NCBI GenBank assembly: GCA_944989445.1
Contig: CALYLW010000068.1
Span: forward strand, 935,001-999,000
DNA: 64,000 bases
Source: Ampullaceana balthica
Taxonomy: Eukaryota; Mollusca; Gastropoda; Lymnaeidae
Direction: 5' to 3'
Positions 7,470 to 44,386 of the stretch are shown here, piece by piece. Every line of letters starts with the position of its first letter. Within the stretch, counting starts at the first letter, position 1. Both the position numbers and the translations under genes were made by a program. The notes below the pieces were generated by a model. The model had not been told where the DNA came from and ran no database searches. It was given only the letters and a program-made list of their open reading frames with translations.

Positions 7470-7480
7470 GTAAGTATATA

Positions 7481-21516: not shown

Positions 21517-21624
21517 GGAGACACGAATGAGGGCGTCTTACTTGACTGGAGGCGTGTTTTCCGTGTAGAGATGATCCGCCTGCGCCGAGAAGTCAACGAC
21601 TTCCGGCAATTTTGTCTCAAACAG
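21517..21624 (+). CDS. Coding exon 2, residues 461-496, start of the coiled coil
   Basis: The acceptor is TACCATCCTCAG at 21516 and the donor is CAG/GTAAGG at 21625. The exon is 108 nt, 36 codons, phase 0 to 0. The peptide includes EMIRLRREVNDFRQF, an amphipathic helix with heptad spacing. A TG-rich stretch lies directly upstream, and a 22-bp minisatellite begins about 155 bp downstream. Confidence 0.8.
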
Positions 21625-21778
21625 GTAAGGGAAGTTAACAATGGAAACTCTAGCTGCACTTTCTGACAGTAATTGATACTCGTGTGACGCTGACATGGCA
21701 CCTGCCATAATGGCACAGTGGGGGCGGGTAGAGGTCACGAACAGACGTCCTGGCGTGTCACGGCCGAATGGGATACTG

Positions 21779-23044
21779 GTCATGATAAGTGGTTGTGGGG
21801 GTCATGATAAGTGGTTGTGGGGGTCATGATAAGTGGTTGTGGGGGTCATGATAAGTGGTTGTGGGGGTCATGATAAGTGGTCGTGGGGGTCATGATAAGT
21901 GGTCGAGGGGTCATGATAAGTGGTCGTGGGGGTCATGATAAGTGGTCGTGGGGGTCATGATAAGTGGTCGTGGGGGGTCATGATAAGTGGTCGTGGGGGT
22001 CATGATAAGTGTTCGTTGGGGTCATGATAAGTGGTCGTAGGGGTCATGATAAGTGGTTGTGGGGGTCATGATAAGTGGTTGTGGGGGGTCATGATAAGTG
22101 GTCGTTGGGGTCATGATAAGTGGTCGTGGGGGTCATGATAAGTGGTCGTTGGGGTCATGATAAGTGGTCGTGGGGGTCATGATAAGTGGTCTTGGGGTCA
22201 TGATAATTGGTTGTGGGGGTCATGATAAGTGGTCGTTGGGTCATGATAAGTGGTCGTGGGGTCATGATAAGTGGTCGTGGGGGTCATGATAAGTGTTCGT
22301 GGGGGGTCATGATAAGTGGTCGTGGGGGTCATGATAAGTGGTCGTGGGGTCATGATAAGTGGTCGTGGGGGTCATGAAAAGTGGTCGTGGGGGTCATGAT
22401 AAGTGGTCGTGGGGGTCATGATAAGTGGTCGTGGGGGTCATGATAAGTGGTCGTGGGGGGTCATGATAAGTGACCGTGGGGGTCATGATAAGTGATCGTG
22501 GGGGTCATGATAAGTGGTCGTGGGGGTCATGATAAGTGGTTGTGGGGTCATGATAAGTGGTCGTGGGGGTCATGATAAGTGGTCGTGGGGTCATGATAAG
22601 TGGTTGTGGGGGTCATGATAAGTGGACGTTGGGGTCATGATAAGTGGTCGTGGGGTCATGATAAGTGGTCGTGGGGGTCATGATAAGTGGTCGTGGGGGT
22701 CATGATAAGTGGTCGTGGGGGTCATGATAAGTGGTCGTGGGGGTCATGATAAGTGGTCGTGGGGGTCATGATAAGTGGTCGTGGGGGTCATGATAAGTGG
22801 TCGTGGGGGTCATGATAAGTGGTCGTGGGGGTCATGATAAGTGGTCGTGGGGGTCATGATAAGTGGTCGTGGGGGTCATGATAAGTGGTCGTGGGGGTCA
22901 TGATAAGTGGTCGTGGGGGGTCATGATAAGTGGTCGTGGGGGGTCATGATAAGTGACCGTGGGGGTCATGATAAGTGGTCGTGGGGGTCATGATAAGTGG
23001 TCGGGGGGGTCATGATAAGTGGTGGTTGGGGTCATGATAAGTAG
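21779..23044. repeat. 22-bp minisatellite, about 57 copies, G-rich
   Basis: The unit contains TCATGATAAGTGGTCGTGGG. The G run varies from 3 to 7, giving 20-23 bp units, as expected from slippage. The + strand carries a G run every 22 bases. It starts about 155 bp after the exon 2 donor. Confidence 0.95.
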
Positions 23045-23915
23045 TCTAAAAGTTACGCTAAATTCTTTTAATTACCCAGGAAATTATGCAGACATGTAGG
23101 GCATCGACGACAGTAGAATGCTAACAGACCGACCGAGAACGAGATGGATGAGGTTGAGAAACATTTACAGTAGGCGGGTGGGGGGGGGCAAGACTTGACG
23201 GCGAAAGAAGAATTTTGAATGGAGGAGCATGTCTGAACTTGTCAGGGGCGCACATGAGGATGATTTGTATACAGTTTTGCATTATCTTATTGAATGCAAA
23301 ATTTATAAAATTAGAAATATCCTGTCATATTTAATTGGATGTTGAAATTGATGTAAATAAAATCTTTATAAATATCAGATTTGGAAAACAAAATTGCTCA
23401 ATGCGTTAAATAGATTCAATATTTTCATCACACGGACATTGTCGCATACAATGAGAAATGTGCGAACAACATCGTCAACATCGTCAAGCCTCTTGTCAAA
23501 ATGTATCAAATATTGCAAAGCTGATTATTGTATAATCATTATAAAATGTTTCACCAACGTTTCATTAATATGTAGATAGTGAGACTCGCTAAAAGGAAAG
23601 AAATTAAATATTGAGAATGCTGGAGGTGTTCTCAAATAAGCTAAATAGTAAAGTAAATTTTCTGTCATAATGTTGTGTTTGTTGAAGTTTATTTAGAATG
23701 TTTCCCTTTTTCCCTAGTGTTTTCGTCATTACTCTATTTCTTCACAAAACAGCTAAAAATAAATTCAAATTTGGCTACATATCATAATCCACCTTTCCCC
23801 GGCAAAAACAAATTTATTATTTTTTTTATTTTAAAATATTGTTAATTTTAGTATTTAAATTTTAACGCGTGTTTCATTCCGCGTCTAACAAGATGGACAC
23901 TTGAAGCTCGTGAAA
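23045..23915. other. Intron 2 unique sequence
   Basis: AT-rich; no coding region supported. Confidence 0.6.
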
Positions 23916-24265
23916 TTGAACAATTGGTATTAGCAATCTATTGAACAATTGGTGTTAGCAATCTATTGAACAATTGGTGTTAGCAATCTATTGAACAATT
24001 GATGTTAGCAATGTATTGAACAATTGGTGTTAGCAATCTATTGAACAATTGGTGTTAGCAATCTATTGAACAATTGATGTTAGCAATGTATTGAACAATT
24101 GGTGTTAGCAATCTATTGAACAATTGATGTTAGCAATCTATTGAACAATTGATGTTAGCAATCTATTGAACAATTGGTGTTAGCAATCTATTGAACTATT
24201 GGTGTTAGCAATCTATTGAACAATTGATGTTAGCAATCTATTGAACAATTGGTGTTAGCAATCCA
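23916..24265. repeat. 25-bp minisatellite, 14 copies
   Basis: The unit contains TTGAACAATTGGTGTTAGCA. The span is 350 bp, exactly 14 units. GGTGTT and GATGTT variants are interspersed. Confidence 0.95.
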
Positions 24266-24472
24266 TGAACTTGAACATCGAATATCACATTTATGAGATA
24301 TTGATTGTTAAGCAGATATTTTTGTCATTTTCAATCACATAAATTTCATTTTTATTGCTTACAGTTTTTAAAACCAATTGTTCACGTCTAAAATATTTTT
24401 ACAAAAGTGTAAGTTTAGACTTTTAGTATTAATCATTCTTTTGGCTCTTCAATCTTACTTAAATTTTATTTA

Positions 24473-24612
24473 GTGGCGTTATATCAATAGGCTGTGGTGA
24501 TGATTCAGTGGCGTTATATCAATAGGCTGTGGTGATGTTTCAGTGGCGTTATATCAATAGGCTGTGGTGATGATTCAGTGGCGTTGTATCAATAGGCTGT
24601 GGTGATGATTCA
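24473..24612. repeat. 35-bp tandem repeat, 4 copies
   Basis: The unit contains AGTGGCGTTATATCAATAGG. Confidence 0.95.
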
Positions 24613-25347
24613 CTTAAAAAGGCCACCCCTTCACCCCCATCTAAACATTACTTTCTACACTTAAAACTTCTAACTTCCACACGTCATGAATTAGCTGGCC
24701 TCCCGATGGCATTGTATGTATGATGATCAGTGTGTTACATGTATATACTTTGGTATCAGCATTGTGTAAGATTTCTCTTTCGACTTATCTGTAACACATT
24801 TTTTTTACCTGTAACACAATTTTTTTTACCTATTTCATATTTCATGATTTTTTTCTTCTTTTCATTTTTGAAATACAATACACATTTTTTGTGACGTCGA
24901 TATATTTAAATTGAATTTGATAAAAGTTTGTGTGTGTAGTTCTGTGATAGTTAATGTTTTAAGGCTGTCCTGGTGATGTTTCTGAAACTTTTTTCATACT
25001 GGTTTTTCTATTTCAAATGTGACAAACCGAAGTTAGATAACGTCCGAAATAGTCCTTTTTATCATCAGGATCAGTGTCGCTGCTACCTAAGAAGTTAACA
25101 TAGGCACACGATCTAAGTGACTATTGAAATCATTTGGTTTATGAGCATATAAACCAACATAGCACCAATTGGTTGGCAAGTCAAATACTAGCAGTGCATC
25201 ATCAAAGATAGCCATGCACATTTCGACATGACACTAATAGGGTGTGCCACCCATTAAATAGCGCAAAGTCATTTTGTTTCATTCCCATCTATTTTTTTTT
25301 AATCCATAAGCTTTTGAACCACCTTTTGAATACTTGTGTTTTCACAG
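24613..25347. other. Intron 2 distal unique sequence
   Basis: AT-rich; nothing recognised before the exon 3 acceptor. Confidence 0.6.
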
Positions 25348-25430
25348 ATAGAACTCAACTCTTTGTCACTACAAAATTCGTGGTCGGAGAAGTCGGGATT
25401 GGAGAATACTCAGAGAAATGACAAACTCCC
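25348..25430 (+). CDS. Coding exon 3, residues 497-523 plus two bases of 524
   Basis: The acceptor is GTGTTTTCACAG and the donor is CCC/GTACGT at 25431. The 83-nt exon ends in phase 2. The peptide (IELNSLSLQNSWSEKSGLEN and onward) is polar. A 19-bp repeat begins about ten bases after the donor. The split codon CC+G continues correctly into exon 4, which is the main support for a short exon like this. Confidence 0.75.
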
Positions 25431-25439
25431 GTACGTTTT

Positions 25440-25562
25440 CTGTAACATAGGTCTTTAGCTGTGACCTGGATCTTTAGCTGTAACATAGATCTTAGATTGT
25501 AACATAGATCTTTAGCCGTAACATAGATCTTTAGCCGTAAAATAGATCTTTAGCTGTGACAG
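25440..25562. repeat. 19-bp repeat, about 6-7 copies, next to the exon 3 donor
   Basis: The unit is close to GTAACATAGATCTTTAGCT. It begins about ten bases after the exon 3 donor. The donor GTACGTTTTCTGTAACATAG leads directly into the first copy. Confidence 0.9.
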
Positions 25563-25687
25563 ATCTTTTGTTTTATTTCCTGAAATAATTCTGAAATTAA
25601 CAGTGAAGTTAAAATTTTATTTACGTTCAAACATTATTTGTGTTGAGTTTTAAGTCAGATACAGGTGAAGTAGTGTGTGAAATCTTT

Positions 25688-25920
25688 GCCTCAATTATAG
25701 GGCCCTAATGAAATATTGTCTGAATTCATTGCCTCTATTATGATGCCCTAATGAAATATTGTCTGAAATCCTTGCCTCAATTATAGGGCTCTAATGAAAT
25801 ATTTTCTGACCCTTGCCTGAATTATAGGGCCCTAATGAAATATTGTCTGAAATCCTTGCCTCAATTATAGGGCCCTAATAAAATATTGTCTGAAATCCTT
25901 GCCTCAATTATAGGGCCCTA
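25688..25920. repeat. 43-bp repeat, about 5 copies, containing the exon 4 acceptor
   Basis: The unit contains CCTCAATTATAGGGCCCTAA. The final copy spans the real acceptor of exon 4 at 25913/25914, so each upstream copy carries the same AG and the first exon bases. Copies diverge by a few substitutions and one short deletion. Confidence 0.95.
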
Positions 25921-26076
25921 ATGTCACCGAGAATCTCAGAACAGCTCCAGAAAGTAGATGGTGATGTAAAGATGCTGCAGAGGAGGCAGACCGTCCTTGA
26001 CCTCGAAGCAGACTTGCTGTCCAAAGAGGGGCAACTCGCGGAGAGACAGAAGGGCCTGGAGGAATACGAAAAAGAG
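25914..26076 (+). CDS. Coding exon 4, residue 524 (third base) to 578, coiled coil
   Basis: The acceptor is CTCAATTATAG at 25913 and the donor GAG/GTGAGA at 26077. One base completes the codon split with exon 3, then 54 codons follow. The peptide includes QLQKVDGDVKMLQRRQTVLD and EADLLSKEGQLAERQKGLEE, typical coiled coil. The acceptor and the first exon bases (GGCCCTAATG) are also part of the 43-bp tandem repeat that fills the end of intron 3. Confidence 0.85.
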
Positions 26077-26527
26077 GTGAGAGGCTACAACAGTGTTGAG
26101 TTAGTTTAATTTCACAAAGTAAGAACTAACGATAGATGGGTGTGTGGAAGACAGAGATAGTGGAAAGGGGGGAGAGAGATTAGGACAACTTCTTCTTCGT
26201 CTACATCTTCTTTTGGCCTGAGACATAGTCTCTTAACGCCTTGGCTACTACCTGGGAAACCAGCTTCATCTGCTGAGCAGTGCCATATAAAATTGTCTTC
26301 GCGTGGGACTCTTTTGCCTCCCTAACCTCCCCGGCTGTCTAGCGCGAGACGCGAAGTTAATTGATTAGGACAACTTGATCCTGCGATCCGATGGATGCAA
26401 CTATTCCTTGTCCTCATTCCACCCTTCCACCTTTCCGCCATAATATCGAACTCCTCATCATTTCAATAAGGACAAATATCCCCTTCCACCCCAATAAACC
26501 AAAAACCAAACAGTAAGCGTATCACAT
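26077..26527. other. Intron 4 unique part
   Basis: Mixed-composition sequence with no recognised feature. Confidence 0.5.
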
Positions 26528-26826
26528 GTCCTCCACCTTGTTTAACAAACATTCCTCCCATGTGTTTAACAAACATGCGTCCCTTATGTTTAACAAACAT
26601 ACCTCCCAGGTGTTTAACAAACAATCCTCCCATGTGTTTAACAAACATTCCTCCCATGTGTTTAACAAACATACCTCCCATGTGTTTAACAAACATACCT
26701 CCCATGTGTTTAACAAACATACCTCCCATGTGTTTAACAAACATACCTCGCATGTGTTTAACAAACATTCCTCCAATATGTTTAACAAACATTCCTCCAA
26801 TATGTTTAACAAAATTTCCTCTCATG
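26528..26826. repeat. 24-bp minisatellite, about 12 copies, running into the exon 5 acceptor
   Basis: The unit contains CCTCCCATGTGTTTAACAAA. The exon 5 acceptor TCCTCTCATGTGCAG aligns with the repeat phase TCCTCCCATGTGTTT, so the splice site looks like a modified last copy. With 24-bp units several frames stay open; these are artefacts. Confidence 0.95.
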
Positions 26827-26831
26827 TGCAG

Positions 26832-26912
26832 ATCATTGAAGTTGAATCGCTGCTGAACCAGCGCCAAGCGATCTGTGACAGGAGACAACGGGCTCTACTC
26901 AACCTGGACGAG
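26832..26912 (+). CDS. Coding exon 5, residues 579-605, coiled coil
   Basis: The acceptor is CTCTCATGTGCAG at 26831 and the donor GAG/GTGAGT at 26913. It is 81 nt, 27 codons, phase 0 to 0. The peptide (IIEVESLLNQRQAICDRRQR and onward) continues the coiled coil. The acceptor side is the last, altered copy of a 24-bp minisatellite, and the donor side is the first copy of a 34-bp minisatellite. This small exon is therefore squeezed between two arrays. Confidence 0.85.
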
Positions 26913-27040
26913 GTGAGTCACTCATTGTCACTGTTGTCTGGATGAGGTGAGTCACTCATTGTCACTTTTGTCTGGATGAGGTGAGCCACTCATTGTCACT
27001 GTTGTCTGGATGAGTTCAGTCACTCATTGTCACTTTTGTC
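26904..27040. repeat. 34-bp repeat, 4 copies, containing the exon 5 donor
   Basis: The unit contains GAGGTGAGTCACTCATTGTC. The first copy is the real exon 5 end and donor (CTGGACGAG/GTGAGT). Later copies repeat CTGGATGAG/GTGAGT or GTGAGC, and the last has GTTCAGTC. Confidence 0.95.
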
Positions 27041-27143
27041 TTTGCAAAACTGTGCTGTATAATTATTTTTTTTATTATTCTGGTTGGTGTTTACATTTTT
27101 TCAATGGGAAAATCAATGGGACCTGCGTGTAAGCATGACTAGC

Positions 27144-27221
27144 AACACATCAATTAAACCAATAACACATCAATTAAACCAATAACAAATCAATTAAACC
27201 AATAACAAATCAATTAAACCA
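27144..27221. repeat. 20-bp repeat, 4 copies
   Basis: The unit is AACACATCAATTAAACCAAT with an AACAAATC variant. Confidence 0.9.
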
Positions 27222-27928
27222 AAACAAATAATTGCTTAATAAAATATTTTCAAAGCCTAGAAGAAAATATTTCATTATTTTTTACCAAAGATCTTTTGCT
27301 TTGTGACCAACACTGAGAGTCACAGGCGTAGGGCGTAGGGGTACTTTTTCTTTCAAGTTTCCTTGACAAGCGATTGCAGATATCCCCACCTCACACTAAC
27401 TCTGGCAACGCCCCTGCTAACATCTATTACATTGTCTTTGAATAATAAAAAAATAACTTTTTAAAAGCCTTTATTCATGAAATAAAACTGTCATTTAAAA
27501 AAATAATTAAGACTTAATTCAATGCCCCGTTTCTGTTTTATTTTTTAAATAATCCAACACAATCAGTTTAGCAGAGTTTATTTATGTGTTTAAAATAATG
27601 TAAAAGTACATTCTATTTCAGGAAAATAACAACTGTAACTAATCCGTTTGGTCTTGACTTGCAATTGATAGGACCACTGAATAGATTAAGTATTTATGTG
27701 TGGGGGAAATAATAAGGGTTAATTTTAGCTCTGTCTATTTGTCTAAACAATTCTTCTTCTGCTGGCAACTTCTGTTCGAATAATCAATAATGGTCTCTAA
27801 AGAATGAAAGTGAAAACTGGAACAATTAAGAATAAAAATAGATATCTGCTTACTTGATCTGACATGACACAGAGCAACAGTGTCAATAGCAGCTCATACG
27901 TGACATTGTGTAAATATTCTCAACACAC
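27222..27928. other. Intron 5 unique AT-rich sequence
   Basis: No feature recognised. Confidence 0.6.
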
Positions 27929-30900
27929 TACTTCCATCAACTCGCGGTAACATAAAGCTACTATCATCAACTCGTGGTAACATAAAGCTACTATCATCAA
28001 CTCGTGGTAACATAAAGCTACTATCATCAACTCGTGGTAACATAAAGCTACTATCATCAACTCGTGGTAACATAAAGCTACTATCATCAACTCGTGGTAA
28101 CATAAAGCTACTATCATCAACTCGTGGTAACATAAAGCTATTACCATCAACTCGTGGTAACATAAATCTACCACCCTCAACTCGTGGTAACATAAATCTA
28201 CCACCCTCAACTCGTGGTAACATAAAGCTACTATCATCAACTCGTGGTAACATAAAGCTACTATCATCAACTCGTGGTAACATAAAGCTACTATCATCAA
28301 CTCGTGGTAACATAAAGCTACTATCATCAACTCGTGGTAACATAAAGCTACTATCATCAACTCGTGGTAACATAAAGCTACTATCATCAACTCGTGGTAA
28401 CATAAAGCTACTATCATCAACTCGTGGTAACATAAAGCTACTATCATCAACTCGTGGTAACATAAAGCTACTATCATCAACTCGTGGTAACATAAAGCTA
28501 TTACCATCAACTCGTGGTAACATAAATCTACCACCCTCAACTCGTGGTAACATAAAGCTACTATCATCAACTCGTGGTAACATAAAGCTACTATCATCAA
28601 CTCGTGGTAACATAAAGCTACTATCATCAACTCGTGGTAACATAAAGCTACTATCATCAACTCGTGGTAACATAAAGCTACTATCATCAACTCGTGGTAA
28701 CATAAAGCTACTATCATCAACTCGTGGTAACATAAAGCTACTATCATCAACTCGTGGTAACATAAAGCTACTATCATCAACTCGTGGTAACATAAAGCTA
28801 CTATCATCAACTCGTGGTAACATAAAGCTACTATCATCAACTCGTGGTAAAATAAAGCTACTATCATCAACTCGTGGTAAAATAAAGCTACTATCATCAA
28901 CTCGTGGTAACATAAAGCTACTATCATCAACTCGTGGTAAAATAAAGCTACTATCATCAACTCGTGGTAACATAAAGCTACTACCATCAACTCGTGGTAA
29001 CATAAAGCTACTATCATCAACTCGTGGTAACATAAAGCTACTATCATCAACTCGTGGTAAAATAAAGCTACTATCATCAACTCGTGGTAACATAAAGCTA
29101 CTATCATCAACTCGTGGTAACATAAAGCTACTATCATCAACTCGTGGTAAAATAAAGCTACTATCATCAACTCGTGGTAACATAAAGCTACTATCATCAA
29201 CTCTACTATCATCAACTCATGGTAACATAAAGCTACTATCATCAACTCTACTACCATCAACTCTACTACCATCAACTCGTGGTAACATAAAGCTACTACC
29301 ATCAACTCTACTACCATCAACTCTACTACCATCAACTCGTGGTAACATAAAGCTACTACCATCAACTCTACTACCATCAACTCATGGTAACATAAAGCTA
29401 CTACCATCAACTCTACTACCATCAACTCATGGTAACATAAAGCTACTACCATCAACTCTACTACCATCAACTCATGGTAACATAAAGCTACTACCATCAA
29501 CTCTACTATCATCAACTCATGGTAACATAAAGCTACTATCATCAACTCGTGGTAACATAAAGCTACTATCATCAACTCGTGGTAACATAAAGCTACTATC
29601 ATCAACTCGTGGTAACATAAAGCTACTACCATCAACTCGTGGTAACATAAAGCTACCACCCTCAACTCGTGGTAACATAAAGCTACTATCATCAACTCGT
29701 GGTAACATAAAGCTACTACCATCAACTCGTGGTAACATAAAGCTACTACCATCAACTCGTGGTAACATAAAGCTACCACCCTCAACTCGTGGTAACATAA
29801 AGCTACTACCATCAACTCGTGGTAACATAAAGCTACCACCCTCAACTCGTGGTAACATAAAGCTACCACCCTCAACTCGTGGTAACATAAAGCTACCACC
29901 CTCAACTCGTGGTAACATAAAGCTACCACCCTCAACTCGTGGTAACATAAAGCTACTATCATCAACTCGTGGTAACATAAAGCTACTATCATCAACTCGT
30001 GGTAACATAAAGCTACTACCATCAACTCGTGGTAACATAAAGCTACCACCCTCAACTCGTGGTAACATAAAGCTACTACCATCAACTCGTGGTAACATAA
30101 AGCTACTATCATCAACTCGTGGTAACATAAAGCTACTATCATCAACTCGTGGTAACATAAAGCTACTATCATCAACTCGTGGTAACATCAAGCTACTATC
30201 ATCAACTCGTGGTAACATAAAGCTACCACCCTCAACTCGTGGTAACATAAAGCTACCACCCTCAACTCGTGGTAACATAAAGCTACCACCCTCAACTCGT
30301 GGTAACATAAAGCTACCACCCTCAACTCGTGGTAACATAAAGCTACCACCCTCAACTCGTGGTAACATAAAGCTACCACCCTCAACTCGTGGTAACATAA
30401 AGCTACCACCCTCAACTCGTGGTAACATAAAGCTACCACCCTCAACTCGTGGTAACATAAAGCTACCACCCTCAACTCGTGGTAACATAAAGCTACCACC
30501 CTCAACTCGTGGTAACATAAAGCTACCACCCTCAACTCGTGGTAACATAAAGCTACTATCATCAACTCGTGGTAACATAAAGCTACTATCATCAACTCGT
30601 GGTAACATAAAGCTACTATCATCAACTCGTGGTAACATAAAGCTACTATCATCAACTCGTGGTAACATAAAGCTACCACCCTCAACTCGTGGTAACATAA
30701 AGCTACTATCATCAACTCGTGGTAACATAAAGCTACTACCATCAACTCGTGGTAACATAAAGCTACTATCATCAACTCGTGGTAACATAAAGCTACTATC
30801 ATCAACTCGTGGTAACATAAAGCTACTACCATCAACTCGTGGTAACATAAAGCTACTATCATCAACTCGTGGTAACATAAAGCTACTATCATCAACTCGT

Positions 30901-31746
30901 GGTAACATAAAGCTACTACCATCAACTCTACTACCATCAACTCTACTACCATCAACTCGTGGTAACATAAAGCTACTACCATCAATTCGTGGTAACATAA
31001 AGCTACTACCATCAACTCGTGGTAACATAAAGCTACTACCATCAACTCGTGGTAATATAAAGCTACTACCATCAACTCTACTACCATCAACTCTACTACC
31101 ATCAACTCGTGGTAACATAAAGCTACTATCATCAACTCGTGGTAACATAAAGCTACTATCATCAACTCGTCGAAACATAAAGCTACCACCATCAACTCTA
31201 CTACCATCAACTCTACTACCATCAACTCTACTACCATCAACTCTATTACCATCAACTCTATTACCATCAACTCGTGGAAACATAAAGCTACTACCATCAA
31301 CTCTATTACCATCAACTCTATTACCATCAACTCTATTACCATCAACTCTACTACCATCAACTCTATTACCATCAACTCTACTACCATCAACTCTATTACC
31401 ATCAACTCTATTACCATCAACTCTATTACCATCAACTCTATTACCATCAACTCTATTACCATCAACTCTATTACCATCAACTCTATTACCATCAACTCTA
31501 TTACCATCAACTCTATTACCATCAACTCTATTACCATCAACTCTACTACCATCAACTCGTCGAAACATAAAACATAAAGCTACTACCATCAACTCGTGGT
31601 AACATAAAGCTTCTACCATCAACTCTATTACCATCAACTCTATTACCATCAACTCGTGGTAACAAAAAGCTTCCACCATCAACTCGTGGAAACAAAAAGC
31701 TACTACCATCAACTCGTGGAAACAAAAAGCTACTACCATCAACTCG
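27929..31746. repeat. 3.8-kb minisatellite of 30-bp units with 15-bp half units
   Basis: The main unit contains CTCGTGGTAACATAAAGCTA plus CTATCATCAA. In 29190-29520 and 30900-31660 it alternates with, or is replaced by, 15-bp units such as CTCTATTACCATCAA. Both lengths are multiples of three, so all minus frames stay open and give very long frames (429, 455, 751 and 766 codons). These are by-products: the frames overlap in different phases and have no non-repeat domain. Variants (ATCATC, ACCATC, CACCCTC) form local runs. Confidence 0.97.
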
Positions 31747-33729: not shown

Positions 33730-33830
33730 GAGTTGCAGATACTACGTCATGAGCTGGAAGAGACCAAAGAACAGATTCAAAGTGAGGGGTCAATTCCTGA
33801 GTCGAACTCGGACAGAGCCAGGAAAAACTG
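33730..33830 (+). CDS. Coding exon 6, residues 606-638 plus two bases of 639
   Basis: The acceptor is CTTCGTGGCCAG at 33729 and the donor ACTG/GTAGGT at 33831. It is 101 nt, ending in phase 2 with TG. The peptide includes ELQILRHELEETKEQIQSE, coiled coil, followed by a polar hinge. The donor is the first of about nine tandem copies of a 30-bp unit beginning GTAGGTCTGTGG. Reading into the intron meets TAG at once, so retention would truncate the protein. Confidence 0.8.
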
Positions 33831-34110
33831 GTAGGTCTGTGGTTAATGGGGAGATGTGTGGTAGGTCTGTGGTTAATGGGAGATGTGTGGTAGGAGGTCT
33901 GTAGTTAATGGGGAGATGTGTGGTAGGTCTGTGGTTAATGGGAGATGTGTGGTAGGTCTGTGGTTAATGGGGAGATGTGTGGTAGGTCTGTGGTTAATGG
34001 GGAGATGTGTGGTAGGTCTGTGGTTAATGGGGAGATGTGTGGTAGGTCTGTTGTTAATGGTGAGATGTGTGGTAGGTATGTGGTTACTGGGAGATGTGTG
34101 AGTGTTATAA
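33831..34110. repeat. 30-bp minisatellite, about 9 copies, beginning at the exon 6 donor
   Basis: The unit begins GTAGGTCTGTGGTTAATGGG and ends GATGTGTG. The first base of the array is the first base of the intron, so every unit repeats the GTAGGT donor hexamer. Confidence 0.95.
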
Positions 34111-34920
34111 CGATTAATATGGGAATGTGCCATTAAGTAGTAAATAGTTTAATACATTTTTTTATTCGATTACGAAGAGATCAAAATGAAAGTTACTTGA
34201 AAAATGGATTTCTATCACGGAGGCAGGCCTTTAGTCCTCTAGTTTGTGTATGGCTACACTTAGTTATGTATTCTTGGGTTAATGTTTTAATGACGTTGTA
34301 GTAACATTGGTTACCTGAAATTACTTAGTTGTTGAGCTCACTAAATGACTGTTTACTAAGAAAACAAGACTAATGATATCTTCTTGAATAAACTACAAAC
34401 AACAAACTAACATTTTATTGAGATACACAAATCCATGAATTTCAGATGTGTTCCGTCATTTAGTCCAAATTAATAATAGATTAGATTGAGACGTGAGTGG
34501 CATTAAGTGTGAAGCTGTGCCACCTCCAAAAGAAACACAGAGTTCAGCAGCTGAATCAGGCGTTCAACTGACACCGAGTTCTGTTTAAAGCACACTGTTA
34601 ATATTTTTGGGCTTCTAACAATGCACAACAAAAAAAAGCCATCTGGAATTCTTTGTTTGTGTCACTAATGACGTATTTAGCCTAGCTCCACGTGCAATTT
34701 CCGAAACATTTAGCATGTCTGTTCTATAAATCCTCAGCCCCACCTATTATAATCATCAGTGTGTTCTACTTAGGACAACACCGTGATGATGTGTTTTAAT
34801 GTGTTGTGACAGGAGTGGTGGTTGGGGGGGGGGTAGGTGAGTTATGAGCATGACGCAGGGGAAGAGATGTGACCCGACAATCTATAAATATAATTCACAA
34901 AAGCAAGAGCGAGTAGTGTG
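34111..34920. other. Intron 6 unique AT-rich sequence
   Basis: No coding or RNA gene signal seen. Confidence 0.6.
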
Positions 34921-34925
34921 CTAAT

Positions 34926-35232
34926 ATGCATGACGAATCACCATCGCTGGGGTCGACCAATCACAGTACGGTTGGCAAGCGAAGAGGTGCAAAGGGGGGA
35001 GGGGGCATGTCTCGAGACCAACAATGCTTGCGTTCACTTGCGTTTCTCTTTCCTAGAAAACATGTGTTATCACACATACCTAACACAATGAAGGTCCTGG
35101 GTTCAAGCCCCAGCTAAAACATTATTTTTTAATTTTAAAAAAAAATTATGTTTGTGTCCGTTCTTTCCCCCTTTCTTTGCACTCTCCATGAGCAAGTCTG
35201 CGGCGTATGCTAAGCTGCGTGTCGTATCTAGT
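34926..35232 (+). mobile_element. Interspersed repeat with tRNA-like centre, copy A
   Basis: It begins GCATGACGAATCACC and CGCTGGGGT, and ends GCAAGTCTGCGGCGTATGCT. A B-box-like GGTTCAAGCCCC lies at about 35098-35109. The same ends and centre recur in reverse orientation at 36231-36963. It is best explained as a SINE-type family with a tRNA-derived segment. Confidence 0.6.
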
Positions 35233-35235
35233 ACA

Positions 35236-36230
35236 TAAATATTTATCTTTTAAATTAAAGTTTCCGCTAATTAGTATCTTTAATCACCCTAAGAGTCAAA
35301 CCGTTTTTGAGTTCATGGATTTTAATTAAATCTTCCATTTGTGATTACGGTGGTTCTGTCATGCGTGACAGCGTGTATTTGTTCGGTTCACCCAATCATT
35401 CATTCCATATTAAGTCCAGACGATTTTGAAGACTTAATATTTTTTTTAATTAAAAGAATTAAAAAAGCAAATGTCATGAAATATAGATGTCTAATTATAA
35501 CCAGATTTTATTTGCATTTTTCTCTTTAAAGTTTATTTACATTTCTCGGTGGTTTGTTTGTTTTCTGTGTTTTAAATATTTTGGTATGTGGTTGAAGTTA
35601 GCTAGCACAATTGATTTCAACTAGGCTTCCTCAAAACACAGTTTTGAGTAAATAGTAAATAGTATAAAGCACGTTTAAAGAAAAGAAAAAAACCTTTTAA
35701 TCTTTCACAAGTAAATATGTTGATATGTTCCAGCTCAATTAATATTTATATATATATCTCTTCGAACATTTCTTGTTGACCTTTTCTACTGAGAAATTTT
35801 TTTGGTTCTTTTCTCGTGGAAAAGCCAATTTTCGCGTGTTTATGCCATGTTATGATAACTGGGAGAATCAATGAATAAAGTTGACATTTAAAAGTGTCTA
35901 CGGTAAAAATGTATAGGTAGATCTTACTAAATAATGATAAAATTTATGATTTCTTATGGTAAAACAAAACCGCTACATGTTTTAGCCATCCTCTTCACTA
36001 TGAGTGACTTTGACTTTATCACCAAGTACTGTAGCACGGTAGTACAGTGTTTTACGAGGTGAAACTTTTGAAATGAGTTTTAACTTAATTAGATTCAAGG
36101 TATTATCATTTGTGAGGAATGTCCTTTGTTATAAAAGACTTATAAGGAGCATATTCACTGACTGATCTAGTAAGTTGAACTCAAGCTTTAAAGAGAACTA
36201 AAGTCCATGTGAGTGGAAATAATAAGATGA
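35236..36230. other. Intron 6 unique AT-rich sequence between two inverted repeat copies
   Basis: Nothing recognised. It would be the loop if the two flanking interspersed copies pair. Confidence 0.5.
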
Positions 36231-36963
36231 ACTAGACGCCCCGCGGCGTAGCATACGCCGCAGACTTGCTCATAGATAGTGCAAAGAAAAGAAGGGGAGG
36301 GGGAGAACGAACACAAACAGTAGCACGAACAAATGGGAACAACGCGAATGAACTTTGGGGGACCACCGAAGCATTTTTTGGGAAGTATTTCGGACATCGC
36401 CACAATTTCTTCTTTGTCACCATATACTCCTGAAGTTTCATGTACAGAGCGTATTGTTGAGAGTGTATGACTACGTTTCCGTCACTGAGAACAACGGAGA
36501 GCTCGTCGCCGAAGTTATACCAATGTTGAGAAACAAATATTACATCCAGGAAGCCAAGTTGGAGACCAACAACTTCTTCCATAAATGAAATTTGCGACCA
36601 AAAGAAACATACAGTTACCTGGTGAAGGCATTGGTATAACACTGAACGAAGCTTTTTTCCGTGACATGCGAAGCGGTGTTTATGTTCGCTACGAAAAAAG
36701 GGGGGGGGGAGAACGTGCATAAGCATTTTTAAAAATTAAAAAAACAAATGTTGCCGCTTGGGCTTGAACCTAAGACCTTCCGAATATCGGGCGGATGTAA
36801 TAACCGATACACTACGAAATTCATGCACATTGTTAAGGAACAATGAAGTGAATGTAAAAAGCAGTGCTGGTCTCAAGACATGTCCCACCCCTCCACTACC
36901 TTCGCTTGCCAACCGTTAACTGTGATTAGTTTACCCCAGCGAGGGTCATTCGTCATGCTCGGT
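36231..36963 (-). mobile_element. Interspersed repeat with tRNA-like centre, copy B, longer
   Basis: Reverse orientation relative to copy A. On the minus strand it starts GCATGACGAATGACC and CGCTGGGGT, carries TAGTGTATCGG and GGTTCAAGCCC (A and B box-like, 36755-36815), and ends GCGGCGTATGCTACGCCGC. It holds about 400 extra bases (roughly 36300-36700) with a 164-codon minus-strand open frame that I cannot assign. Confidence 0.6.
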
Positions 36964-38048
36964 TGCACATACTTGCAGCTTGTCTCGCATGGTCCCATGT
37001 AGAGAATTAAATATATAGATGTGTATTCCGTGTATGTGACACGAAATCGTATTATGGTATACATTCACTGAGAAACGAAAAGAATATCATTAACTTGGGT
37101 CGAACAAAGAAATACCTTAAAAGAGTTCATGGATAAATCTAGGTCTCAATTAACCACACCTCCACCTGCGTCTGCTCATATAATTGCTACGCCCGTTGGT
37201 CAAACGCCCCAGCTCCCAGTTACTGCATTGATCTAACTACCAACTTTAATTTTCCTGTCCCGTGTTTTTGTTTGTGGCTGACAGGGATTGTCCTGACTGG
37301 TCATTACCCGAGGACATCACTGGTACCGGCCGGACGAAACTTTGCCTGGAGACGATGTGTCGGGTCATTATCTGGCAGTCTGGGGTGCAGGGCCACAGGG
37401 CAATGAGTGGGGGAGGGTTGTTTGAACGTTCTCAGCTCAGGGGCGTATGGAGGTTATGGTCGTTTGAACGTTGTCAACTCAGGGGCGTATGGAATGTTTG
37501 TGATAGTGACAGTGATTATTTTCAGAGATGAACTCATATTTCGTCATACTTTGACATGAACTAATTCCCGGTAAGCTGAGAGATCCTACCAAGGAATGAT
37601 TTATTTCCTTTAAACTGCTTGAATGGTGGCGGCATTTTCGGTCACCTAAAGTTGTTGTTTTTCTTTAGAGGAAAGGTTAAGGGGGGAGGGGGGATAACTC
37701 TGTCTACTTCTCTGGCAGAATTAAGTGTCGATAGCCCCCGTATAAATGGATAGTGTCGAAAATATACCTTAGAAGGGGAAAGTTCACATATTGCTGCCAC
37801 CATCTTTGGGCTTTCTGTAAATAGTACGTTGTATAAATATTTCAAACAATTTAACACAAGCAAGTCAGTGCCAGAGTCATGCTATCATGGCTACTGAATT
37901 ACAATCAAGTATTAATGAACTTCTCAGCTATGTGGAGCTATTATTAAAGTGACATAAATATCAGGTTATTTTATTATATTTTAAAATAAAATTAGGCCCT
38001 AACATTCTTGTATATTTCCCTTGAACGTTTTTAAATTTTTGTGTTGTG

Positions 38049-38058
<10 letters not shown>
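36964..38058. other. Intron 6, unique sequence
   Basis: It contains a GC-richer stretch at 37285-37500 behind a good acceptor-like sequence. No gene feature is firm enough to call. Confidence 0.5.

Positions 38059-38112
<54 letters not shown>
38059..38112. repeat. (TG)n(TA)n microsatellite
   Basis: Alternating TA, preceded by a short GT run. Confidence 0.9.
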
Positions 38113-38115
<3 letters not shown>

Positions 38116-38249
38116 AGGGCGGATAAAGACTGCACAGTGAACCTGGCTGCAATTCCAACTGGGGCCCTATACAGCCAGCATCCCTTTAAATAAAATGATT
38201 GCTAGCAGCTAATACAAGACTGTAACGTGTAACTAAATAGTACATTGGT

Positions 38250-38485
38250 TCCTTATCTTATCTCATACTTAGTCTGTACTATGGGATATGCCTTCCCAGC
38301 CAAAGGATTATTCATGAAAAAATCTAACACGAAGAAATAACTGTTTGCCAGTATCCTAAAATTGATTGTAAAAAGACAATTTAAAAAAAAGACTAATGAA
38401 AAAAATTCCCCACTGGGAATCGATCCCGATTTCGCTTGCACGACAAGCCTACACACTTCCACACGACCAGGAGGGCCTGACGGAA
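38250..38485 (-). mobile_element. tRNA-derived SINE candidate
   Basis: On the minus strand there is a tRNA-like order: TCGTGTGGAAG (A-box region), a GCTT/AAGC anticodon-arm-like stem, then GGGATCGATTCCC (B box and T-arm). The downstream part is T-rich. A functional tRNA is unlikely because the acceptor stem does not close. Confidence 0.5.
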
Positions 38486-38753
38486 TGTGTAAATTACAAA
38501 AATATAAACAATATTCTTTAATATTTTCTCATATTAAGCCTATCAAATCAGGTTTTTCGATTACTAAGTCTATCGGGTCTAAATAGCGATCAGATTAATA
38601 GATAAGATTTTATTAATTTATTTAATTTATAATATTTTCAGGGATTCATGCAAACATTTGTCCACCTTTATTACAAAATATACTCAATTTGGGGGCCCCT
38701 AATATATCGGGGGCCCCTGCCTTTAGCCCGTTTAGTCCCCCCCCAATCCGCCA

Positions 38754-38756
<3 letters not shown>

Positions 38757-38814
<58 letters not shown>
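38757..38814. repeat. (TA)n microsatellite
   Basis: About 58 bp, roughly 150 bp before exon 7. Confidence 0.95.
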
Positions 38815-38818
<4 letters not shown>

Positions 38819-38960
38819 ATGAACATAAATATGTGTGTGTGTGTGTAGAGAGAGAGGGGGGCGGAGAGGTAACATGTAGTAGACATGGAGGCTTTCGTCC
38901 CAGTTTTTTTCATAGTTCTATTCTCCTGTACAATTGTGACCTTACTGTCTATAATTTTAG

Positions 38961-39096
38961 GGACATGGTAAGGCGAAACTTGATGGACAAACAGCACCTG
39001 TTGGAGTCCACTGTCCAGAAGTACAGGTCAGAACTGGCATCAGCCACTTCCACTTTAGCAGGGAAGGACATTCTCATTGCCAGGCTGCAGAGTAAA
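38961..39096 (+). CDS. Coding exon 7, residue 639 (third base) to 684, coiled coil
   Basis: The acceptor is CTATAATTTTAG at 38960 and the donor AAA/GTAAGT at 39097. One base plus 45 codons, ending in phase 0. The peptide includes LLESTVQKYRSELASATSTL and ends LQSK. The last exon bases AGAGTAAA and the donor GTAAGT are repeated about 130 times in the following intron. Confidence 0.85.
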
Positions 39097-42000
39097 GTAA
39101 GTTGATATGTGATCTACAGAGTAAAGTGAGTTGATATGTGATCTACAGATTAAAGTAAGTTGATATGTGATCTACAGAGTAAAGTAAGTTGATATGTGAT
39201 CTACAGAGTAAAGTGAGTTGATATGTGGTCTACAGAGTAAAGTGAGTTGATATGTGGTGTACAAAGTTGATAGTGGTCTACAGAGTAAAGTCAGTTGATA
39301 TGTGGTGTACAAAGTTGAAAGTGGTCTACAGAGTAAAGTGAGTTGATATGTGATCTACAGAGTAAAGACAGTTGATATGTGATCTACAGAGTAAAGTAAG
39401 TTGATATGTGATCTACAAAGTTGATATGTGGTCTACAGAGTAAAGTGAGTTGATATGTGGTCTACGGAGTTGTTATGTGGTCTACAGAGTAAAGTGAGTT
39501 GATATGTGGTCTACAGAGTAAAGTGAGTTGATATGTGGTCTACAAAGTTGATATGTGGTCTACAGAGTAAAGTGATTTGATATGTGATCTACAAAGTTGA
39601 TATGTGGTCTACAAAGTTGATATGTGGTCTACAGAGTAAAGTGATTTGATATGTGGTCTGCAAAGTAGATATGTGGTCTACAAAATTGATATGTGGTCTA
39701 CAGAGTAAAGTGAGTTGATATGTGGTCTACAGAGTAATGTGAGTTGATATGTGGTCTACAAAGTTGATTTGTGATCTACAGAGTAAAGTCAGTTGATATG
39801 TGGTCTACAGAGTAAAGTGAGTTGATATGTGATCTACAGAGTAAAGTCAGTTGATATGTGGTCTACAGAGTAATGTGAGTTGATATGTGATCTACATAGT
39901 AAAGTGAGTTGATATGTGATCTACAGAGTAATGTGAGTTGATATGTGGTCTACAAAGTTTATATGTGATCTACATAGTAAAGTGAGTTGATATGTGATCT
40001 ACAGAGTAAAGTGAGTTGATATGTGGTCTACAGAGTAAAATGAGTTGATATGTGGTCTACAGAGTAAAGTGAGTTGATATGTGATCTACAGAGTAAAGTG
40101 AGTTGATATGTGATCTACAGAGTAAAATGAGTTGATATGTGGTCTACAGAGTAAAATGAGTTGATATGTGGTCTACAGAGTAAAGTGAGTTGATATGTGA
40201 TCTACAGAGTAAAATGAGTTGATATGTGGTCTACAGAGTAAAGTGAGTTGATATGTGATCTACAGAGTAAAGTAAGTTGATATGTGATCTACAGAGTAAA
40301 ATGAGTTGATATGTGGTCTACAGAGTAAAGTGAGTTGATATGTGATCTACAGAGTAAAGTGAGTTGATATGTGATCTACAAAGTTGATATGTGGTCTACA
40401 GAGTAAAGTAAGTTGATATGTGATCTACAGAGTAAAGTGAGTTGATATGTGATCTACAAAGTTGATATGTGGTCTACAGAGTAAAGTGAGTTGATATGTG
40501 GTCTACATAGTAAAGTAAGTTGATATGTGGTCTACAGAGTAATGTGAGTTAATATGTGGTCTACAAAGATGATATGTGATCTACAGAGTAAAGTGAGTTG
40601 ATATGTGGTCTACAGAGTAAAGTGAGTTGATATGTGGTCTACATAGTAAAGGTAGTTGATATGTGGTCTACAGAGTAAATTTAGTTGATATGTGATCTAC
40701 AGAGTAAAGTAAGTTGATATGTGGTCTACATAGTAAAGTAAGTTGATATGTGGTCTACAGAGTAATGTGAGTTAATATGTGGTCTACAAAGATGATATGT
40801 GATCTACAGAGTAAAGTGAGTTGATATGTGGTCTACAGAGTAAAGTGAGTTGATATGTGGTCTACAAAGTTGATATGTGACCTACAGAGTAAAGTGAGTT
40901 GATATGTGGTCTACATAGTAAAGTAAGTTGATATGTGGTCTACAGAGTAATGTGAGTTAATATGTGGTCTACAAAGATGATATGTGATCTACAGAGTAAA
41001 GTGAGTTGATATGTGGTCTACAGAGTAAAGTGAGTTGATATGTGGTCTACATAGTAAAGGTAGTTGATATGTGGTCTACAGAGTAAATTTAGTTGATATG
41101 TGATCTACAGAGTAAAGTAAGTTGATATGTGGTCTACAGAGTAATGTGAGTTAATATGTGGTCTACAAAGATGATATGTGATCTACAGAGTAAAGTGAGT
41201 TTATATGTAGTCTACAAAGTTGATATGTGGTCTACAGAGTAAATTGAGTTGATATGTGATCTACAGAGTAAAGTAAGTTGATATGTGATCTACAAAGTTG
41301 ATATGTGATCTACAGAGTAAAGTGAGTTGATATGTGGTCTACAAAGTTGATATGTGGTCTACAGAGAAAAGTAAGTTGATATGTGGTCTACAGAGTAAAA
41401 TTAGTTGATATGTGGTCTACAGAGTAAAGTGAGTTTATATGTGAACTACATAATAAAGTGAGTTGTTAAGTGATCTACAAATTTGATATGTGGTCTACAG
41501 AGTTAAGTGAGTTGATATGTGGTCTACAAAGTTGATATGTGATCTACAGAGTAAAGTAAGTTGATATGTGATCTACAGAGTAAAGTGAGTTGATATGTGA
41601 TCTACAGAGTAAAGTAAGTTGATATGTGATCTACATAGTAAAGTGAGTTGATATGTGATCTACAGAGTAAAGTGAGTTGATATGTGATCTACAGAGTAAA
41701 GTGAGTTGATATGTGATCTACAGAGTAAAGTAAGTTGATATGTGATCTACAGAGTAAAGTGAGTTGATATGTGATCTACAGAGTAAAGTGAGTTGATATG
41801 TGATCTACATAGTAAAGTAAGTTGATATGTGGTCTACAGAGTAAAGTGAGTTGATATGTGATCTACATAGTAAAGTGAGTTGATATGTGATCTACATAGT
41901 AAAGTGAGTTGATATGTGATCTACATAGTAAAGTAAGTTGATATGTGATCTACAGAGTAAAGTGAGTTGATATGTGATCTACATAGTAAAGTGAGTTGAT

Positions 42001-42983
42001 ATGTGATCTACATAGTAAAGTGAGTTGATATGTGATCTACAGAGTAAAGTGAGTTGATATGTGATCTACAGAGTAAAGTAAGTTGATATGTGATCTACAG
42101 AGTAAAGTGAGTTGATATGTGATCTACAGAGTAAAGTGAATTGATATGTGATCTACATAGTAAAGTAAGTTGATATGTGGTCTACAGAGTAAAGTGAGTT
42201 GATATGTGGTCTACAGAGTAAAGTGAGTTGATATGTGATCTACAGAGTAAAGTGAGTTAATATGTGGTCTACAAAGTTGATATGTGATCTACATAGTAAA
42301 GTGAGTTAATCTGTGGTCTACAAAGTTTATATGTGATCTACAGAGTAAAGTAAGTTGATATGTGGTCTACAGAGTAAAGTGAGTTGATATGTAGTCTACA
42401 GAGTAAAGTGAGTTGATATGTGATCTACAGAGTAAAGTAAGTTGATATGTGATCTACAGAGTAAAGTGAGTTGATATGTGATCTACAGAGTAAAGTGAGT
42501 TGATATGTGATCTACAGAGTAAAGTGAGTTGATATGTGGTCTTCAGAGTAAAGTAAGTTGATATGTGATCTACAGAGTAAAGTGAGTTGATATGTGATCT
42601 ACAGAGTAAAGTGAGTTGATATGTGGTCTACAGAGTAAAGTAAGTTGATATGTGATCTACAGAGTAAAGTGAGTTGATATGTGATCTACATAGTAAAGTG
42701 AGTTGATATGTGATCTACAGAGTAAAGTGAGTTGATATGTGGTCTACAGAGTAAAGTGAGTTGATATGTGGTCTACAGAGTAAAGTGAGTTGATATGTGG
42801 TCTACAGAGTAAAGTGAGTTGATATGTGGTCTTCAGAGTAAAGTAAGTTGATATGTGATCTACAGAGTAAAGTGAGTTGATATGTGGTCTACAGAGTAAA
42901 GTGAGTTGATATGTGGTCTACAGAGTAAAGTGAGTTGATATGTGATCTACAGAGTAAAGTAAGTTGATATGTGGTCTACAGTC
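39087..42983. repeat. 3.9-kb minisatellite of 29-bp units seeded by the exon 7 donor
   Basis: The common unit contains AGAGTAAAGTGAGTTGATAT and ends GTGATCTAC or GTGGTCTAC. Shorter units without AGAGTAAAG also occur (ACAAAGTTGATATGTGGTCT). The first unit is the real exon 7 end plus donor (CAGAGTAAA/GTAAGT). About 130 units follow, many with GTGAGT or GTAAGT. Blocks of several units are re-copied; for example the series with ATAGTAAAGGTAG recurs near 40645 and 41045. Confidence 0.97.
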
Positions 42984-43125
42984 GTGAGATGACCGTAGTA
43001 AACCCAGATATTGGTCAGAACATTGTATTGGTCAAAGGAGGTCCGAGTGCCTTTGTTTCCTTGGTGCTATCGTTAATGTTGACACCAGCCAAAATGACCA
43101 ATGGCTTATGTAGTTGTAATTATGT

Positions 43126-43887
43126 GGTTATGGCTAATGTTGTTGTGGCTAATGTTGTGATGACTAATATTGTTATGGCTAATGTTGTGATGGCTAATGT
43201 CGTTATGGCTAATGTTGTTATGGCTAATATTTTTATGGTTAATGTTGTTATTGCTATTGTTGTTATGGTTGATGTTGGTATGGCTATTGTTGTTATGGCT
43301 AATGTTGTTATGGCTAATATTTTTATGGTTAATTTTGTTATTGCTATTGTTGTTATGGTTGATGTTGGTATGGCTATTGTTGTTATGGCTATTGTTGTTA
43401 TGGCTGATGTTGGTATGGCTGATGTTGGTATGGCTAATGTTGTTATGGCTAATGTTGGTATGGCTAATGTTGGTATGGCTAATGTTGGTATTGCTGATGT
43501 TGGTAAGGCTAATGTTGTTATGGCTAATGTTGGTATGGCTAATGTTGGTATGGCTGATGTTTGTATGGCTAATGTTGGTATGGCTAATGTTGGTATGGCT
43601 AATGTTGGTATGGCTAATGTTGGTATGGCTAATGTTGGTATGGCTGATGGTGGTATGGCTAATGTTGGTATGGCTGATGTTGGTATGGCTAATGTTGGTA
43701 TGGCTGATGTTGGTATGGCTGATGTTGGTATGGCTAATGTTGGTATGGCTAATGTTGGTATAGCTAATGTTGGTATGGCTGATGTTGGTATGGCTAATGT
43801 TGGTATGGCTAATGTTGGTATGGCTAATGTTGGTATGGCTAATGTTGGTATGGCTAATGTTGGTATGGCTATTGTTATTATGGCTAA
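43126..43887. repeat. 15-bp minisatellite, about 51 copies, ending next to the exon 8 acceptor
   Basis: The unit is GGTATGGCTAATGTT with GTTATGG and GCTGATG variants. It has no stops in two frames, so it fuses by reading frame with exon 8 into a spurious 471-codon frame. It ends about 20 bases before the exon 8 acceptor. Confidence 0.95.
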
Positions 43888-43909
43888 GGTTCTTTTCCTC
43901 TACTTACAG

Positions 43910-44386
43910 ATCATCGAGCAAGAGGACGAGCTCGTCACTAAAGACAAACGAATCAAACAACTGGAGACCAAACTGGCGCTGACCATGGCTGAGGCGAGGA
44001 ACCTTGCTGACCAACTGACCAACCACTCGTACAGGGACATGCTCGGCTCCACCAACTACAGCAGGGGTGAGCACTCGGGCGACTACAACGGCATGTTCGT
44101 CGCCCGGCGCCCCAGCCAGGAGCTCATCCCCGAACACCCGCGGGGCGCGTACCGCAGCTCGATGTATCGTAGACCGTCCAATAACGCCGGAAGTGACCAG
44201 GGGGAGGAGTACAAACCGGTCATCACCGCGGCGCTGGACCACGACGCTGAACAGTTCAAGAATGGTTCTCGTATTGTGAGGAAGCGGAACAGCATCAGTG
44301 ATAATGCCATCTCTCGTCTGACGCTGTCCACCCCTCGGTCTGACGACAAGTATGGGAGGGGCAGCAGTGCCTGTTCGGTTCAGTGA
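43910..44386 (+). CDS. Coding exon 8, residues 685-842 and stop, C-terminal tail
   Basis: The acceptor is CTCTACTTACAG at 43909 and the stop TGA at 44384-44386. It encodes 158 residues. It begins with coiled coil (IIEQEDELVTKDKRIKQLET to about residue 725), then a Gly/Arg/Ser-rich tail with several Arg-rich sites (RIVRKRNSISD). The start echoes exon 5, which also begins with IIE. The frame is open upstream into the intron only because the 15-bp repeat there has no stops; that part is not coding. Confidence 0.85.
   Translation: MIEQEDELVTKDKRIKQLETKLALTMAEARNLADQLTNHSYRDMLGSTNYSRGEHSGDYNGMFVARRPSQELIPEHPRGAYRSSMYRRPSNNAGSDQGEEYKPVITAALDHDAEQFKNGSRIVRKRNSISDNAISRLTLSTPRSDDKYGRGSSACSVQ

What the first reader, a model, noticed from the sequence alone, without database searches (positions are those of the whole stretch)
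21517..44386. Possible general process: introns growing by tandem multiplication of their own splice sites
Of seven introns, four have a splice site inside an adjacent array (exon 4 acceptor; exon 5, 6 and 7 donors). A further acceptor (exon 5) looks like a modified last copy, and arrays start or stop within about 10-20 bases of the exon 3 donor and exon 8 acceptor. The units are unrelated in sequence, so this is not one transposon family. A mechanism that nucleates tandem duplication at exon-intron borders, or selection that tolerates arrays only where they preserve splice signals, would explain it. I know of no named system of this kind.
Basis: partly seen in the sequence, partly recalled or inferred. 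Interest (0 to 1): 0.8.

Follow-up and report, generated by a model that had tools for sequence, protein, structure and literature searches.

The report
Tandem repeats straddling exon edges
In this snail-like mollusc genome, short tandem repeats sometimes swallow the edge of an exon and copy its splice site many times into the intron; the phenomenon is real, but it is a known kind ('mirages', described in lancelets) and in our sample needs no special process that starts repeats at exon borders.

Summary
Confirmed: in seven joined exons of a gastropod coiled-coil gene, 4 of 13 splice sites lie inside tandem arrays. Junction-spanning arrays occur there too: CCT1, CCT2 (twice), three clear kinesin junctions and two degenerate ones. 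But junctions show no excess: sides with an array number 2 of 264 in exon (-60..-41), 8 at the junction (+1..+5) and 18 in the intron (+41..60); the CCT subset alone is flat (3 of 68). The window gene has a similar shape at higher density (4 of 13 at +1, 8 of 13 at +50). Units of 104 arrays around the gene carry no significant excess of splice motifs over reversed controls. Best explanation: tandem duplications arise blindly; those straddling a border survive because the outermost copy keeps exon and splice site, and later copies lengthen the intron. This matches the 'mirage' minisatellites of amphioxus, so 'no named system' is wrong. New: a mollusc and a frequency estimate (about 3% of sampled junctions). 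No RNA evidence; a whole-genome motif test did not complete.

The parts
25348..25430 (+). exon 3; donor CTCCC|GTACGT not in an array (next array starts 9 bp on)
25440..25561 (+). 19-bp array beginning 9 bp after the exon 3 donor
25666..25923 (+). 43-bp array, 6 copies, TTATAG in 5 of 6; the last copy supplies the exon 4 acceptor TTATAG|GGCC and 10 nt of exon
25914..26076 (+). exon 4 (an alternative in-frame start at 25932 cannot be excluded)
26539..26828 (+). 24-bp array, 12 copies, ending 3 bp before the exon 5 acceptor; last copy flows into CATGTGCAG|
26832..26912 (+). exon 5
26904..27041 (+). 34-bp array, 4 copies, spanning the exon 5 donor (CTGGACGAG|GTGAGT; donor hexamers of the copies GTGAGT, GTGAGT, GTGAGC, TTCAGT)
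33730..33830 (+). exon 6
33829..34100 (+). 30-bp array, about 9 copies, starting 2 nt inside exon 6 and repeating its donor TG|GTAGGT
38961..39096 (+). exon 7
39088..42981 (+). 29-bp array spanning the exon 7 donor (AGTAAA|GTAAGT); 117 regular units sliced, 99 of them with GTRAGT in junction register
43129..43891 (+). 15-bp array ending 18 bp before the exon 8 acceptor
43910..44386 (+). last exon (exon 8) with stop codon

Best explanation
These are mirage-type minisatellites. In a genome very prone to tandem duplication, short segments are duplicated at positions that take no notice of exon borders (inferred from the lack of a peak). Duplications inside exons are purged (inferred). A duplication that straddles a border is nearly neutral, because the outermost copy (5'-most for a donor, 3'-most for an acceptor) still carries the complete exon end and its splice site, and the extra copies fall into the intron. 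Slippage and unequal exchange then multiply the copies (inferred, not shown), so the intron lengthens by arrays full of decoy splice sites. The spliceosome must use the copy next to the exon body, probably by exon definition, because several arrays hold decoys as strong as the real site (strengths computed; site choice inferred). The window gene is striking because its introns are array-rich, not because its borders are special.
For: Gene model and arrays. The same thing in two gene families whose exons were picked without looking at arrays. CCT1 acceptor: 67 bp x 7.0, 32 nt of exon. CCT2 donor: 49 bp x 9.0, 24 nt. CCT2 acceptor: 79 bp x 2.0, 50 nt. Kinesins: acceptors 51 bp x 2.0 (24 nt) and 55 bp x 2.0 (44 nt), donor 39 bp x 25.8 (16 nt); two more by eye: acceptor 37 bp x 27 nearly filling its intron, and a degenerate 29-bp acceptor case. 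Profile over 264 junction sides, array bases per 1000: 2.4 at -100..-61 in exon, 26.5 at -10..-1, 28 at +1..+5, 56 at +21..40, 64 at +41..80, 49 at +81..100 where the fetched flanks end. Junction 8 of 264, intron 18 of 264. A 24-mer self-match test gives the same direction: at least 18 of 24 matched in 0, 1, 3, 5, 5, 7, 8 of 264 and 12 of 261 sides at offsets -60, -40, -20, -10, 0, +10, +20, +35. Splice motifs in 104 array units: donor 22% against 13.5% reversed and 16% shuffled (Wilcoxon p 0.66); acceptor 5.8% against 9.6% and 8.8% (p 0.83). Decoys within 0.5 bit of the real site or better: 5 of 6 in CCT1, 3 of 5 at exon 4, 1 of 1 in the C7 kinesin.
Against: In the CCT subset there is no gradient: 3 of 68 sides are in an array at the junction and at every intron distance to +100; the 3 sizeable arrays near CCT exons all span a junction and none of similar size lies wholly in the fetched intron flanks. 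Exon-side array edges are about as dense per base as intron-side ones (7 in 50 nt of exon, 11 in 60 nt of intron); if straddling duplications cost anything, that hints at some excess. The share of units with a strong donor motif is nominally above controls (22% against 13.5% and 16%). Part of the 24-mer gradient is base composition: the mean best match rises from 11.5 in exon to 13.0 in intron. Slippage, polymorphism and splice-site use were not observed.
Confidence: 0.8

Rival explanations
1. A process nucleates tandem duplication at exon-intron borders (replication or transcription stress, or the AG|GT motif itself), so that introns grow preferentially from their splice sites.
For: 4 of 13 sites in the window gene; 3 of 3 sizeable arrays in the CCT sample span junctions and that subset shows no gradient; exon-side edge density about equal to intron-side density.
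Against: No peak at junctions in 264 sides; no significant motif excess in 104 units. A crude whole-genome count of GTAAGT pairs at 14-bp spacing gives 734+439, below the backwards control 1300+1406, though copies in one array count many times there.
Confidence: 0.08
2. The introns themselves were created by tandem duplication of exonic AGGT (tandem genomic duplication), and the arrays are remnants of that birth.
For: Tandem genomic duplication is a proposed route of intron gain with in vivo support (PMC3443670, passages read), and mirages were proposed as a route to new introns (PMC3087553, passages read).
Against: In none of the six window introns do donor and acceptor lie in the same array; in the kinesin intron that is nearly all array the donor lies outside it. 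The window arrays share at most 10 nt with exons.
Confidence: 0.05
3. Assembly artefact: copy number or the arrays themselves are produced by misassembly.
For: Array copy numbers are often wrong in assemblies (general knowledge); no reads were available.
Against: Copies in the window arrays differ by scattered substitutions; spanning arrays occur on several contigs, and three have only two copies. Exact copy numbers remain unsure.
Confidence: 0.04
4. The multiplied splice sites are selected for, as decoys or regulators of splicing.
For: 99 of 117 sliced units in the exon 7 array keep GTRAGT in register.
Against: Most other positions of that unit are at least as conserved, so recent homogenisation explains it. 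In the C103 kinesin array 19 of 24 matched copies have TCAC where the real acceptor has TCAG. In CCT2 only 1 of 8 decoy donors comes within 0.5 bit of the real one.
Confidence: 0.03

Closest known systems
'Mirage' minisatellites of amphioxus (Adh3, globins BflGb6/BflGb9, troponin C; imperfect ones in PGBD5); PMC3087553 and PMC3902484, passages read; the Adh3 paper is not held
   Same: Tandem units that include an exon end and its splice site; both donors and acceptors; unit length and sequence differ from gene to gene; many but not all copies keep splice signals.
   Different: A gastropod mollusc, not a cephalochordate; copy numbers up to about 140; frequency estimated over 264 junction sides. 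Length polymorphism, somatic instability and normal splicing, reported for amphioxus, could not be tested here.
Intron gain by tandem genomic duplication (PMC3443670, passages read; PMC4974935 and PMC2891723, listing and start of abstract only)
   Same: Tandem duplication makes extra splice signals in a gene.
   Different: Here existing introns are lengthened (inferred); donor and acceptor of the window introns do not come from one duplicated exonic segment.
Human internal tandem repeats altering gene structure (PMC2812944, listing and start of abstract only)
   Same: Tandem repeats inside genes that affect gene structure.
   Different: Paralogues in segmental duplications; from the part seen, not defined by splice-junction spanning.

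Membership tests
mirage minisatellites | tandem array whose unit spans an exon-intron boundary | tested here: met
   4 of 13 sites in the window gene (the exon 6 case has only 2 nt of exon); CCT and kinesin cases
mirage minisatellites | unit sequences unrelated between loci (not one element family) | tested here: met
   78 pairs of 13 units compared; longest shared stretch 14 bp, AT-rich, CCT1 against CCT2, E 4e-4
mirage minisatellites | normal mRNA in spite of decoy sites | not testable with these tools
   no RNA data; only the joined frame supports use of the outermost copies
mirage minisatellites | length polymorphism or somatic instability | not testable with these tools
   one assembly, no reads
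mirage minisatellites | found in cephalochordates (described range) | tested here: not met
   7 of 7 relatives of the window protein are gastropod; best CCT5 match Batillaria; a range, not a mechanism
intron gain by tandem genomic duplication | donor and acceptor both derived from the same duplicated exonic AGGT segment | tested here: not met
   six window introns and the C103 kinesin intron; not examined for the other introns
   two gene families, 264 sides
   104 units in 264 kb, no significant excess, donor share nominally higher; the whole-genome donor-pair search did not complete

The most novel reading that the evidence does not exclude
In this mollusc about one splice junction in 30 is straddled by a live minisatellite, making this a widespread route of intron lengthening and a natural experiment in which the spliceosome picks one site among dozens of near-identical, equally strong copies purely by position next to the exon. 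The exon-bound copy, held by selection, may act as a master that keeps such arrays alive longer than free intronic ones.
Probability: 0.3. Interest if true: 0.55.

Novelty: new member of a known kind. Interest (0 to 1): 0.33.

Why it matters
It carries a phenomenon that, in the papers my searches found, is described for lancelets into a mollusc, with a frequency estimate and a control that argues against special nucleation. The arrays offer ready-made test cases for splice-site choice among identical candidates and for how near-neutral duplication lengthens introns.

Tried and rejected
Tried: whole-genome count of GTAAGT pairs at 14-bp spacing, no excess over its backwards control; the counts pile up in long arrays, so it weighs little. 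Pfam scan of the joined protein and five other window ORFs gave no family over its cut-off. L121 (kinesin, C676) has a 33-bp array at the end of its hit but no credible donor there: coding repeat or broken copy, not counted as spanning. L086, L062 and L125 are borderline (weak array; degenerate similarity; array starting 3-4 bp inside the intron). TRF counts L086 and L125 among the 8 sides at +1..+5 and misses the degenerate L114 and L066, so 8 of 264 is a TRF count, not a hand count. Limits of the sample: CCT stretches were chosen because their exons lie close together, which may favour short introns; 36 of 51 CCT hits were used, one of them (internal stops) then left out of the junction set; 120 of 127 kinesin hits were fetched in listing order. 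44 of 240 kinesin sides were dropped (score under 3, or more than 30 nt from the hit end). CCT junctions were placed by eye, helped by vertebrate CCT sequences recalled from memory; two acceptors came out 1-2 nt off and a script moved them to a nearby AG. Kinesin junctions were placed with a matrix built from the CCT and window sites (made, used). The names CCT1 and CCT2 are recalled, not from a call; CCT5 is borne out. Kinesin flanks of 105-120 bp hide long units and arrays starting far out, so intron density is a lower bound. Window ratios are taken at single points (+1, +50), sample ratios over short intervals, so they compare only roughly. Copy walking lost irregular arrays (exon 7) and had the C3 site 1 nt off; both were redone, where the C3 copies were found by their motif, so their equal scores are by construction.
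Full report
What is there. The window is part of a 1.097-Gb genome (C68:935001-999000). The seven relatives found for the protein all come from gastropods: Haliotis, Aplysia, Gigantopelta and Elysia, 42-63% identical. A CCT5 piece is 89% identical to a Batillaria protein. Seven exons between 21517 and 44386 join in frame with GT-AG introns to 382 aa.

The arrays. Four of 13 splice sites lie in TRF arrays with different units (43, 34, 30 and 29 bp). In the gene model the copy used is the outermost one in each case, so the protein is untouched and the extra copies lie in the intron. The exon part caught in the array is 10, 9, 2 and 9 nt. Two introns are 77% and 97% array. The exon 4 acceptor is the least certain of the four: another in-frame AG 18 nt further on lies outside the array.

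Is it more than chance for this gene? Arrays cover 32% of the 264 kb around and including the window (5,000 bases of it read N) and 55% of the gene's span. At +50 in the intron 8 of 13 sides are in an array, at +1 4 of 13, at -5 3 of 13, at -20 none. The junctions are touched about as often as that density leads one to expect.

Test outside the window. CCT chaperonin (PF00118) and kinesin (PF00225) exons were located in the genome; 36 of 51 and 120 of 127 hits were fetched with flanks. The CCT stretches were picked for exons lying close together, the kinesin ones in listing order. 264 junction sides were usable (68 CCT, 196 kinesin; 136 donors, 128 acceptors; 44 kinesin sides dropped). Arrays spanning junctions turned up in CCT1 (acceptor, 7.0 copies), CCT2 (donor, 9.0 copies; acceptor, 2.0 copies) and three kinesin junctions (acceptors of 2.0 and 2.0 copies, a donor of 25.8), with two further acceptors spanned by degenerate copies, one of them in a 27-copy array that nearly fills its intron. 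So the phenomenon is not confined to the window gene.

No excess at the border. Counting sides with any array base: 1 of 264 at -100..-61, 2 at -60..-41, 5 at -40..-21, 7 at -20..-11, 7 at -10..-1, 8 at +1..+5, 9 at +6..10, 13 at +11..20, 16 at +21..40, 18 at +41..60 and +61..80, 14 at +81..100, where the fetched flanks end. The CCT subset shows no gradient (3 of 68 throughout the intron); the rise comes from the kinesins (5 of 196 at +1..+5, 15 of 196 at +41..80). Comparing +1..+5 with +41..60, ten sides have an array only in the intron and none only at the junction (p 0.002). A 24-mer self-match test independent of TRF gives the same direction, part of it from base composition. The ratio of junction to intron is 0.44 in the sample and 0.50 in the window gene; what sets the window gene apart is density (8 of 13 against 18 of 264, p 2e-6). 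The units of 104 arrays in 264 kb are not significantly enriched in donor or acceptor motifs over reversed units. Results that lean the other way: the three sizeable arrays near CCT exons all span junctions; exon-side edges are about as dense as intron-side ones, 7 in 50 nt against 11 in 60 nt; donor-motif units are nominally 22% against 13.5% reversed and 16% shuffled.

How it works. The simplest account is position-blind tandem duplication plus selection. Border-straddling duplications keep one intact exon end with its splice site and push the rest into the intron. Decoys are as strong as the real site in several arrays: within 0.5 bit or better in 5 of 6 copies in CCT1, 3 of 5 at exon 4 and 1 of 1 in the C7 kinesin, and in 25 of 97 later GTRAGTT copies at exon 7; at the C3 kinesin 24 copies, the real one included, carry the same donor TTG|GTAGGC. 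So choice must rest largely on position, presumably exon definition (inference). In other arrays decoys are weaker: 19 of 24 matched copies in the C103 kinesin have TCAC instead of TCAG, 1 of 8 decoy donors in CCT2 comes within 0.5 bit, and the single decoy copy is weaker in the CCT2 acceptor, C105 and C1067 cases.

Known kind. Amphioxus genes carry 'mirages', minisatellite-like tandem duplications of exon-intron boundaries, at donors and acceptors, reported or suggested not to disturb splicing; examples are Adh3, globins, troponin C and, imperfectly, PGBD5 (PMC3087553 and PMC3902484, passages read; the founding Adh3 paper is not held). Searches for splice-site minisatellites and for gastropod cases listed no mollusc paper whose title or shown abstract describes it; the one gastropod gene-structure paper listed (Conus, PMC3862624) speaks of simple microsatellites in introns in the passages I read. 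I read none of the papers in full. Intron birth by tandem genomic duplication (PMC3443670, passages) is different: no window intron has donor and acceptor in one array.

Verdict. Real, found in other genes of this genome, of a known kind, and not evidence for border nucleation. What would change this is a genome-wide, RNA-supported junction set.

Noticed in passing
window -100000..+164000 (C68:835001-1099000): Very dense minisatellites: 32% of 264 kb, including a 29-bp array of about 14.5 kb at +122977..137482 and a 65-bp array from +158653 to the end of the fetched stretch.
   Followed up: partly
C68, window coordinates -23726..-16980 and -12118..-9379: Two long 38-bp arrays with, by eye, much the same unit in opposite orientation.
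   Followed up: no
51871-51979, 52280-52351, 53837-53899, 54203-54259: Short arrays of a 14-15-bp unit (CGACAAAACGGCCC) in both orientations within 2.4 kb; its core also at +72792.
   Followed up: no
6072-7481 (+): Open frame of 469 aa ending in a stop, Ser/Arg-rich by eye, no Pfam family over its cut-off; may be the last exon of a neighbouring gene.
   Followed up: no
L090/L171/L066 (C103:656107-657789): The 37-bp kinesin acceptor array also scores as a 225-bp higher-order repeat; 5 of 24 matched copies, the real acceptor included, have TCAG and 19 have TCAC.
   Followed up: partly
L121 (C676:548542-548871): Kinesin-like exon with a 33-bp tandem repeat in frame where no donor is seen; possible broken or odd copy.
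   Followed up: no
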